NCBI GenBank assembly: GCA_034717495.1
Contig: JAYELL010000026.1
Span: forward strand, 1 to 43,454
From: Chloroflexota bacterium
Lineage (GTDB): Bacteria > Chloroflexota > Anaerolineae > JAAEKA01
Reading direction: 5' to 3'
DNA length: 43,454 nucleotides
The notes under the pieces: generated by a model
Told to the model about the DNA's origin: nothing
Database searches by the model: none
The model's input: the letters and a program-made list of their open reading frames with translations, nothing else
Part shown: positions 18,677-31,782 of the stretch, piece by piece
Layout of the letters: each line of letters begins with the position of its first letter
Position numbering within the stretch: position 1 is the stretch's first letter
Translations under genes and position numbers: made by a program

Positions 18677-18766
18677 AGACGATGCGTGAGCTAGACGATG
18701 CGTGAGCTAGACGATGCGTGAGCTAGACGATGCGTGAGCTAGACGATGCGTGAGCTAGACGATGCG
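18677..18766. repeat. 16-bp tandem repeat, five full copies and one partial
   Basis: AGACGATGCGTGAGCT is repeated exactly at 18677, 18693, 18709, 18725 and 18741, with a truncated sixth copy at 18757. The copies are identical, indicating recent expansion by slippage or recombination. Degenerate derivatives (GGTGCGTGAGCTAG, GGCGTACCGTGA) continue to about 18935. Beyond that, to 19139, I see no gene; the words CCCCTCGACAGGCTCGGG at about 18991 look like a dispersed repeat. Confidence 0.95.
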
Positions 18767-20947: not shown

Positions 20948-22894
20948 ATGAAACTTTTTGTACCAGGACGCATCTGCATGTTCGGCGAGCATTCTGATTG
21001 GGCTGGTGGCTACCGGCGCATCAACGCCGATATCGAACAAGGCTTCACCCTCATTGCAGGCACCGACCAGGGAATCTACGCTGAGGCAGAGTCCCATCCA
21101 ACCTCCCTGGTCTTGTCAGCTACCCAGCCCGATGGCCAGCGAGTCGGGCCGTACGAAATTCCCATGGAGTCCCAGGCCTTGCTGGAAGAGGCCCAGGCAG
21201 GCGGCTTCTGGAGCTACATTGCTGGCGTTGCCTACCAGATGTTAACCCATTACCACGTACGCGGCCTCGCGATCGACAACTACAAGACCGATCTTCCGAT
21301 GAAAAAGGGGCTCTCCTCCAGCGCAGCGATCTGTGTGATGGCTGCCCGCGCCTTCAACCGGGTGTACGATCTGAAGCTGACAGTGCGGGGGGAGATGGAG
21401 ATGGCCTATCTGGGTGAGATCACCACGCCATCCCGTTGCGGACGAATGGATCAGGGCTGTGCCTTCGGCAATCGTCCCGTTCTGATGGTATTTGATGGAG
21501 ACCGGTTGGAAACCAAGGAACTCCTGGTAGACGACGATCTGCATTTCGTCATCGTCGACCTCGACGCAGCCAAGGACACCATGGAAATCCTCAATCGCCT
21601 GAACCGCTGTTATCCCTTTGCTGAAAACGATGTCGAAAAAGGGGTCCAGGAGTTGCTTGGTCCCATCAACAAACGGATAGTCCAACAGGCCATGGACCGA
21701 CTGGTCAATTCAGATGCCCAACACCTGGGAGAGCTGATGGTCGAGAGCCAGGCATTCTTCGACCGTTATGCCACCCCCGCCTGCCCGGAAGAACTGACTG
21801 CCCCGGTATTGCACAAGGTTCTGGCATATGAGCCCCTCAAGCCCCACATCTGGGGTGGCAAAGGAGTTGGGTCGCAGGGGGATGGCACCGCTCAATTCAT
21901 GGCGCGAAGCAAGGCCGATCAGCAGGCAGTCATCGAGATTCTCAAGAGCGACCTGGCCATGGAAGCCCTGCCTCTGACACTCAAACCAGGGCAACAGGTG
22001 CGCAAGGCGCTGATCCCGGCAGCCGGCTTCGGTACTCGCCTCTTTCCAGCTACGAAGGCAGCCAAAAAGGAACTGTTCCCGATCATCGACGAGGATGGTA
22101 TCGCCAAACCGGCTATCCTGCTGATCGTCGAAGAAGCGTTGGAGGCAGGCATTGAAGAGGTCATCATTATCGTCCAGGAGGACGACCTGCCGGAATTCGA
22201 AGACTTTTTCAACCAACAGGTGTCCATCGAGAACTTCAACAAGTTGCCGAGTCACTTTCAGGATTATGCTCGCCGGATTCTCGATATCGGTCGCAGGGTA
22301 ACCTTCGCCGTTCAGACTACCCAACAGGGTTTTGGCCACGCCGTCTATTGTGCCCGCGAGGCCATCGGCGATGAACCCTTCCTCCTGATGCTCGGTGACC
22401 ACATTTACCGTTCCCAGGGTAAAGCCTCTTGCGCCCGCCAGTTGATGGATGCCTACCAGCAACATGGTACGAGCATTCTGGGGCTTCGCCGTACACCTGA
22501 AAAGGATATTGCCAGCTTTGGCACCGTGGCAGGTGTCTGGCTGGAAGATAACCGCCTGCTCAGCGTCACCGAATTTGCCGAAAAACCCAACCTGGACTAC
22601 GCGCGCCAGTATCTGAGAGTCCCGGGCTTGCCCGACGATGAGTACCTGACGGTTTTTGGCCAATATATCATCAAGCCCAAGATATTTGATTATCTGGAGG
22701 AGCACGTAGCCCACAACGTCCGTGAGCGGGGAGAGTTTCAGCTGACGTCGACGCTGGACAGGCTGCGCCAGGAAGATGGTTTCCTTGGCTTGATCATGGA
22801 TGGGCGACGTTTTGACATAGGATTGCCATACCATTATCTGGAAACCCTGGCGACCTATGCTGCGCCGTCACCAACGGGGAGGGGTGCTGTTTGA
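20948..22894 (+). CDS. Fusion of a GHMP sugar kinase and a GalU-type nucleotidyltransferase
   Basis: A 648-residue two-enzyme protein. Residues 1 to about 345 are a GHMP kinase: GRICMFGEHSDWAGG (7-21) resembles the galactokinase signature, KKGLSSSAA (119-127) is the ATP loop and GKGVGSQGDGTAQ (304-316) the third motif. Residues about 352-640 are a UTP:glucose-1-phosphate uridylyltransferase-like enzyme with PAAGFGTRLFPATK (357-370), LMLGDHIY and FAEKP. The kinase would make a sugar-1-phosphate and the second domain activate it to a nucleotide sugar, as in the FKP-type fusions. The sugar and nucleotide are not determined. The last ~10 residues (SPTGRGAV) look non-native and overlap the BTAD remnant. 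Confidence 0.92.
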   Translation: MKLFVPGRICMFGEHSDWAGGYRRINADIEQGFTLIAGTDQGIYAEAESHPTSLVLSATQPDGQRVGPYEIPMESQALLEEAQAGGFWSYIAGVAYQMLTHYHVRGLAIDNYKTDLPMKKGLSSSAAICVMAARAFNRVYDLKLTVRGEMEMAYLGEITTPSRCGRMDQGCAFGNRPVLMVFDGDRLETKELLVDDDLHFVIVDLDAAKDTMEILNRLNRCYPFAENDVEKGVQELLGPINKRIVQQAMDRLVNSDAQHLGELMVESQAFFDRYATPACPEELTAPVLHKVLAYEPLKPHIWGGKGVGSQGDGTAQFMARSKADQQAVIEILKSDLAMEALPLTLKPGQQVRKALIPAAGFGTRLFPATKAAKKELFPIIDEDGIAKPAILLIVEEALEAGIEEVIIIVQEDDLPEFEDFFNQQVSIENFNKLPSHFQDYARRILDIGRRVTFAVQTTQQGFGHAVYCAREAIGDEPFLLMLGDHIYRSQGKASCARQLMDAYQQHGTSILGLRRTPEKDIASFGTVAGVWLEDNRLLSVTEFAEKPNLDYARQYLRVPGLPDDEYLTVFGQYIIKPKIFDYLEEHVAHNVRERGEFQLTSTLDRLRQEDGFLGLIMDGRRFDIGLPYHYLETLATYAAPSPTGRGAV

Positions 22895-27900: not shown

Positions 27901-27930
27901 TTGGTCTTTCCGCGTCAACTGTGGCATAAT
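27901..27930 (+). promoter_or_regulatory. Probable promoter of the selenoprotein-GT2-flippase operon
   Basis: An extended -10 element TGGCATAAT (hexamer 27925-27930) lies 18 bp after a weak TTGGTC (27901-27906). A start near 27937 would give a ~35-nt leader carrying GAGGAGG. The 27704-27900 stretch shows nothing else. Confidence 0.5.
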
Positions 27931-27971
27931 CTGACAATTACAGAGAAGGCATTTTCGAGGAGGCTGTGACC

Positions 27972-28214
27972 TTGCGAATTGAAATAGAATACTGCGCAGT
28001 CTGACACTATACCTCAAAAGTCGCCAGGATGGCGGAAGAACTGTTGAGGGACTTCGAATTCCAGATCACCGAGCTTGCCATCGTTCCCAGTGATGGAGGG
28101 AAGTTCGAGGTCATGCTGGACGACAAGCTGATTTACTCGAAAAAACGTACAGGCCGCCACGCCGAATATGCTGAAGTGGCAGCGGAAGTGCGAAAAAACC
28201 TTGTATCGAGGTAA
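27972..28214 (+). CDS. Probable selenoprotein: Rdx family (SelW/SelT/SelH-like) with CxxU motif
   Basis: An 80-residue product if the in-frame TGA at 28002-28004 is read as selenocysteine. The N-terminus reads MRIEIEYCAV-U-HYTSKVARMAEELL, and the remainder FEFQITELAIVPSDGGKFEVMLDDKLIYSKKRTGRH matches the Rdx fold. Family members carry CxxC or CxxU at exactly this position at the end of the first strand, so U11 fits as a thioredoxin-like redox residue. TTG 27972 is chosen because GAGGAGG stands 8 nt before it; GTG 27966 is too close. A conventional caller would begin at ATG 28029 and lose strand 1 and the active site. A SECIS-like hairpin follows the TGA. Cytosolic redox role inferred. Confidence 0.82.
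28012..28049 (+). promoter_or_regulatory. Candidate bacterial SECIS element
   Basis: An outer stem CCTCAA (28012-28017) with TTGAGG (28044-28049) and an inner stem CGCCA (28022-28026) with TGGCG (28030-28034) enclose a GGA apical loop 23 nt after the UGA. Spacing and a G in the loop agree with the bacterial SECIS consensus, which SelB recognises. The structure is drawn by eye; no folding energy was computed. Confidence 0.6.
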
Positions 28215-28218
28215 CCAT

Positions 28219-29217
28219 TTGAGCAGTCAACCGCCGAACTTGTGCTGCAGCGTAGGAATTACGGCATACAACGAACAGGATAATATTGGCCCCCTTCTGG
28301 AGGCCATGATTGATCAGCATTTGCATCAGGTGACGATTTCGGAGATCATCATCGTTGCAAGTGGTTGCACCGATAACACGGTCCCGATCATCAAGTCCTA
28401 CCAGAAAAAAGATCCGCGTATCAGGCTGATCGAACAACCTGAACGGCGGGGAAAGACTTCGGCGATCAACCTTTTCCTGGAAGCCGCCAGCCAGGACATT
28501 CTGGTGCTGGAAAGCGGCGATACCCTTCCGCAGGAATATGCTGTCGAAAACCTGGTACGCGTCTTCGAGGATCCGACCGTGGGAATGACCGGCGCACATA
28601 AGATTCCCGTCAACACACCCGATCACCTGGTGGGACTGTTCACGCACCTGAGACTGCGAATGGAGCACGAACTGTGCATGGATATTCCCCGCCTCGGAGA
28701 GATGATCGCTTTCCGTCGCGTCCTGGACCACATTCCTCCCGACGTTGCGATGGACGAAGCCTTTGTGGAAGCGATCGTCGTCAAGAATGGATTGCGTGTC
28801 ATTTATTCGCCCGATGCAGTGGTCTACAACACAGGCCCCGACACGATCAGCGATTTTGTCCGTCAACGCCGGCGAAACCATGCCGGGCATCTCTTTCTCC
28901 AGGACAAGTATGGACACCAGGTGTCCAGCCTGCAGAATAAACGGGTCGCCAGGATTGCTTTCCGGGAAGTCTGGGGAGCTGTTCAGCTCGTTTATAGCAT
29001 CGGATTGTTGGGGATCCTGGAGGGGTTTAGCCGCTTTCTTGGCTGGTACGACTTCGCGATTAAACGCGAACGTCACGTGGTCTGGGATATGGCCTATTCA
29101 CAAAAACAGAACGTTCAGGAGTTGCGTAAGGACGCTGACGGGAATGGCAATGGCAATGGGGAAGAACGTCCCATAGTGCTTACGACAACACAACAGCAGC
29201 AACAGACAAACGGTTGA
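28219..29217 (+). CDS. Family 2 glycosyltransferase
   Basis: A 332-residue protein. CSVGITAYNEQDNIGPLLEAM is the GT-A nucleotide-sugar-binding start. LVLESGDTLPQEYAVENLV carries a likely DxD-equivalent (ESGD). GMTGAHKIP and the later VRQRRRNHAGHLFL are the Q/RxxRW-like region of processive or GT2 enzymes. One or two hydrophobic segments lie near 262-290. The C-terminal tail is Asn/Gly then Gln rich. TTG 28219 is preferred as start: GAGGT lies about 8 nt before it, overlapping the end of the selenoprotein gene 4 bp upstream. It probably builds a surface glycan or glycolipid with the flippase-like protein next to it. Confidence 0.88.
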   Translation: MSSQPPNLCCSVGITAYNEQDNIGPLLEAMIDQHLHQVTISEIIIVASGCTDNTVPIIKSYQKKDPRIRLIEQPERRGKTSAINLFLEAASQDILVLESGDTLPQEYAVENLVRVFEDPTVGMTGAHKIPVNTPDHLVGLFTHLRLRMEHELCMDIPRLGEMIAFRRVLDHIPPDVAMDEAFVEAIVVKNGLRVIYSPDAVVYNTGPDTISDFVRQRRRNHAGHLFLQDKYGHQVSSLQNKRVARIAFREVWGAVQLVYSIGLLGILEGFSRFLGWYDFAIKRERHVVWDMAYSQKQNVQELRKDADGNGNGNGEERPIVLTTTQQQQQTNG

Positions 29218-31503: not shown

Positions 31504-31551
31504 TGGTTGCAGAGGGCATCTACCAATAGGGTCGCGATTTCACGAATGGCC

Positions 31552-31687
31552 CCCGCGTCCCCGTGTCCCCGTGTCCCCATGTCCCCGCGTCCCCGTGTCG
31601 CCGCGTCCCCGTGTCCCCGCGTCCCCGCGTCCCCGCGTCCCCGCGTCCCCGTGTCGCCGCGTCCCCGCGTCCCCGCGTCCCCGCGTC
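31552..31687. repeat. Seventeen tandem 8-bp units (CCCGCGTC family)
   Basis: Seventeen contiguous octamers, CCCGCGTC or CCCGTGTC with a few CCCATGTC and GCCGCGTC variants. The period never slips. The minus strand of the array can be read as Gly/Arg/Asp/Thr strings in every frame, but these are artefacts. The same family begins the window at 1-96. The array lies between the promoter of the TolB-like gene and the end of the SdrD-B gene. Confidence 0.97.
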
Positions 31688-31782
31688 CCCGCTCCCGGCC
31701 AGCCAATGCCAACCGGGAGCAGCCACACCATGCTTGATTTGCCGGGCAATGTATCAATCCAATGCCCGGGGCCAAAGTTTGT

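What the first reader, a model, noticed from the sequence alone, without database searches (positions are those of the whole stretch)
27972..28214. Unannotated selenoprotein: Rdx/SelW-like gene with in-frame UGA
Seen: an uninterrupted frame except one TGA at 28002-28004, a GAGGAGG site 8 nt before TTG 27972, and EYCAV-U-HYTSK in front of a normal Rdx C-terminal half. Also seen: a two-part hairpin with a GGA loop 23 nt after the TGA. Known: Rdx proteins have CxxC or CxxU exactly here. Inferred: the TGA is selenocysteine and the host has selA/B/C/D. Standard gene callers would start at ATG 28029 and lose the active site. It leads an operon with a GT2 glycosyltransferase and a flippase-like protein, an unusual setting for a redox selenoprotein.
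Basis: partly seen in the sequence, partly recalled or inferred. Interest (0 to 1): 0.85.

Follow-up and report, generated by a model that had tools for sequence, protein, structure and literature searches.

The report
Ordinary SelW-like bacterial selenoprotein gene
This is a real selenocysteine-containing SelW/Rdx redox protein gene, read through a UGA codon, but it belongs to one of the commonest known bacterial selenoprotein families, and its unusual place at the head of a sugar-transferase operon looks like a local gain of this lineage (or a loss in its relatives).

Summary
The observation and the interpretation both hold. Window 27972-28214 encodes a complete 80-residue Rdx/SelW-like protein with UGA at codon 11 (EYCAV-U), Pfam Rdx 75 bits. 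The host genome (Anaerolineae-type Chloroflexota, inferred) carries selA, selB and tRNA-Sec with anticodon UCA, plus two formate dehydrogenase-like genes with in-frame UGA at the expected site. No selD was found, in an assembly that is 95.6% complete. The UGA is not an error: 179 of 396 genomes of the class carry an Rdx gene, nearly all listed matches with exactly one in-frame TGA, and all 47 named loci recovered from Chloroflexota and other phyla have TGA at this codon. The hairpin after the UGA is a bacterial SECIS: short stem, loop starting with G, compensatory changes, some synonymous. [quoted passage not shown] The operon setting is local: four relatives keep the same glycosyltransferase and flippase with no Rdx gene in front. 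Function is inferred: a small thioredoxin-fold redox protein.

The parts
27922..27932 (+). Promoter-like element TGTGGCATAAT (extended -10 type), shared with relatives that lack the Rdx gene
   Evidence: Same sequence upstream of the glycosyltransferase gene in four family genomes; function inferred; start and end approximate by 2 bases
27957..27963 (+). Ribosome binding site GAGGAGG
   Evidence: Read directly, 8 nt before TTG
27972..28214 (+). SelW-like Rdx selenoprotein gene, 80 residues with Sec at codon 11
   Evidence: Pfam Rdx 75 bits; TIGR02174; same UGA in relatives
28002..28004 (+). In-frame TGA read as selenocysteine, second redox residue of CxxU
28021..28035 (+). SECIS hairpin, six-pair stem with loop GGA
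28219..29217 (+). GT2 glycosyltransferase, probable start TTG 28219, four bases after the Rdx stop
   Evidence: Pfam Glycos_transf_2 80.2 bits; orthologues in relatives at 77-82% identity
29234..30232 (+). Flippase-like membrane protein
   Evidence: PF03706 143.5 bits, TIGR00374 80.6 bits

Best explanation
The gene is a SelW-like (Rdx family) selenoprotein. SelB with Sec-tRNA binds the hairpin just after the UGA and inserts selenocysteine at codon 11, giving a CxxU redox site at the start of a small thioredoxin-like fold. The product most likely acts as a thiol/selenol oxidoreductase. The gene sits between an old promoter and the GT2-flippase pair as a lineage-specific arrangement, so the operon says little about its substrate. 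Shown: reading frame, family, conserved UGA, covarying hairpin, Sec genes in the genome. Inferred: actual Sec insertion, redox function, co-transcription.
For: Full-length Rdx match through the UGA. selA 465 bits, selB 349 bits over cut-off, tRNA-Sec 71 bits with anticodon tca. Two formate dehydrogenase-like genes in the same genome with in-frame TGA followed by His, SIDHCARL-U-H and YIEHQARI-U-H. 179 of 396 genomes of the class have Rdx; all but nine of the listed matches carry exactly one TGA. All 47 named loci carry TGA at this codon. The hairpin: 96.8% of cells paired and 14 cells changed on both sides against a shuffled mean of 4.5; 58 of 68 distinct sequences pair at all five inner positions against 38 of 3823 other in-frame stretches of the same genes, and all 68 have G as first loop base. 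Solved relatives include Selenoprotein W and bacterial SelW-related proteins.
Against: No selD found in this genome, although three of five family members have one. No protein-level proof of Sec.
Confidence: 0.95

Rival explanations
1. The UGA is a real stop and the gene is a decayed pseudogene, or a short protein starts at ATG 28029.
For: Standard gene calling gives a 61-residue ORF from ATG 28029; selD was not found.
Against: The nine residues before the UGA (RIEIEYCAV) are conserved in relatives that have the same UGA; the hairpin covaries; a pseudogene would not keep one UGA at one codon over many phyla; ATG 28029 lies inside the hairpin.
Confidence: 0.03
2. The UGA is a sequencing or assembly error for a cysteine codon (TGC or TGT).
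For: The assembly is a set of 120 contigs; Cys forms of Rdx exist (L020, L021, L045).
Against: The same TGA in all 47 named loci and in most of the class; the SECIS hairpin is present in the window, whereas it serves no purpose for a Cys codon.
Confidence: 0.01
3. UGA is inserted as another residue, for example cysteine by SelA using thiophosphate, because the host has no SelD.
For: selD not found by three searches.
Against: The AIRS_C search found neither PurM nor PurL, which nearly every free-living bacterium has, so assembly or search is incomplete for this superfamily. Relatives in the family have SelD, itself with a UGA.
Confidence: 0.03

Closest known systems
Bacterial SelW-like selenoproteins (Zhang et al. 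2006, PMC1794560; Zhang and Gladyshev 2008, PMC2398784)
   Same: CxxU motif, Rdx domain, size, SECIS directly after the UGA; Cys homologues rare
   Different: No difference in the protein itself; host lineage and gene neighbourhood only
Rdx family PF10262 / TIGR02174 SelT/SelW/SelH
   Same: Full-length match
   Different: Many family members have CxxC, not CxxU
Mammalian selenoprotein W (PDB 2npb)
   Same: Profile match E 4.6e-8 over residues 2-66
   Different: Distant in sequence; eukaryotic SECIS lies in the 3' untranslated region (general knowledge)

Membership tests
Rdx / SelW-like selenoprotein | Rdx domain over full length | tested here: met
   75 bits against cut-off 22.6
Rdx / SelW-like selenoprotein | CxxU with UGA at the second position | tested here: met
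   EYCAV-U, aligned with relatives
Rdx / SelW-like selenoprotein | Bacterial SECIS hairpin just after the UGA with G at the start of the loop | tested here: met
Sec-decoding trait | selA, selB, tRNA-Sec in the genome | tested here: met
Sec-decoding trait | selD in the genome | tested here: inconclusive
   Not found; assembly 95.6% complete and PurM/PurL also not found by the AIRS_C search
Rdx / SelW-like selenoprotein | Selenium in the protein and redox activity | not testable with these tools
   Needs protein chemistry

The most novel reading that the evidence does not exclude
This lineage decodes UGA without SelD, or with a strongly diverged selenophosphate supply, so that the residue at the UGA is not made by the standard route.
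Probability: 0.04. Interest if true: 0.6.

Novelty: new member of a known kind. Interest (0 to 1): 0.22.

Why it matters
It is an active-site residue that a standard gene call of this genome would lose, and it shows that SelW-like selenoproteins are widespread in the class (179 of 396 genomes have Rdx, mostly with UGA). That is useful for annotation and for counting selenium users. It does not change what is known of the family. The synteny shows that the unusual operon should not be read as a clue to function without more cases.

Tried and rejected
Functional link of Rdx with the glycosyltransferase and flippase: no match of either protein in the DNA held around 77 other Rdx loci (flanks 1.5-5 kb, cut by contig ends in some), and the pair exists without Rdx in four relatives. 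L018 as SelD: it scores highest as HypE-like (118 bits) and stays under every SelD cut-off. SelD in the own genome by a relative's protein and by AIRS_C: nothing. Rfam on the window: no match. No promoter or terminator excess in the region.

Full report
The observation. The sequence is as described. A GAGGAGG site at 27957-27963 stands 8 nt before TTG 27972; the frame runs to TAA 28212-28214 with one interruption, TGA 28002-28004. Read through, the product is an 80-residue protein that matches Pfam Rdx from end to end with 75 bits, and TIGR02174 (SelT/SelW/SelH) with 60.6 bits. Without the read-through only a 61-residue piece from ATG 28029 remains.

The host. The window lies in a 5.0 Mb genome of 120 contigs, 95.6% complete. 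It has selA (465 bits), selB (349 bits, over the cut-off of 242) and a tRNA-Sec (71 bits against a gathering score of 47) with anticodon tca by ARAGORN. It also has two formate dehydrogenase-like genes with an in-frame TGA followed by histidine, so UGA is very probably decoded as Sec elsewhere in the genome too. selD was not found: the best matches are HypE-like proteins below the cut-off, a relative's SelD gave no match, and AIRS_C found only two genes. The last search also failed to find PurM and PurL, which I would expect in such a bacterium, so I take the gap as assembly or search failure, not as biology. Three of five family members do have selD, itself with a UGA.

Relatives. In 396 genomes of the class, 179 have an Rdx match and nearly all the listed matches carry exactly one TGA; nine listed matches have none. 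All 47 named loci, from Chloroflexota, Gemmatimonadota, Planctomycetota, Acidobacteriota, Desulfobulbaceae and others, have TGA at this codon. The search patterns lay beside the UGA codon and did not require it. Cys forms exist (L020, L021, L045).

The SECIS. In 26 class sequences the stem at 20-25 with 29-34 after the UGA is kept: 96.8% of cells pair, 14 cells are changed on both sides (shuffled mean 4.5), and sliding the partner by 1-3 columns destroys it. Some compensatory changes are synonymous: GCC with ACG becomes GCG with ACC.

The setting. The Rdx stop and the probable GT2 start TTG 28219 are four bases apart, and the flippase gene follows, so co-transcription is likely (inferred). But four family genomes keep the divergent DUF2207 gene, the GT2 (76-82% identity) and the flippase (62-70%) with no Rdx between them. 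Three of them align to the same promoter-like sequence upstream, and the fourth shows it in the printed sequence. The five family members gave no Rdx match at all. So Rdx was gained here or lost in the relatives; the evidence does not say which. Neither neighbour was found in the DNA held around 77 other Rdx loci. No functional link should be read from the operon.

What is known. SelW-like was among the 25 bacterial selenoprotein families of the 2006 survey, ten members, with Cys homologues rare (PMC1794560). In the Global Ocean Sampling data it was the most abundant family: 427 Sec forms with CxxU and 56 Cys forms (PMC2398784). Solved structures of the family include selenoprotein W and several bacterial proteins. 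This gene is one more member, in a group where it is common. The function of the bacterial proteins beyond a thioredoxin-like redox role is, to my knowledge, open; nothing here bears on it.

Noticed in passing
window 20948-22894: One 648-residue ORF joins a GHMP (galactokinase-like) kinase domain to a sugar nucleotidyltransferase domain (GalU-like); an unusual fusion.
   Followed up: partly
window 31551-31696: Array of about 18 copies of an 8-base unit CCCCGCGT; similar C-rich arrays at 5-93.
   Followed up: no
window 18677-18766: Perfect tandem array of 5.6 copies of a 16-base unit AGACGATGCGTGAGCT.
   Followed up: no
L018 1378-2496: HypE/ThiL/SelD-like AIR synthase protein present in all family members searched (with partial coverage in one), separate from the true HypE next to hypD in L019; role unclear.
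   Followed up: partly
genome G000: selD not found although selA, selB and tRNA-Sec are present; AIRS_C search found no PurM or PurL either.
   Followed up: partly
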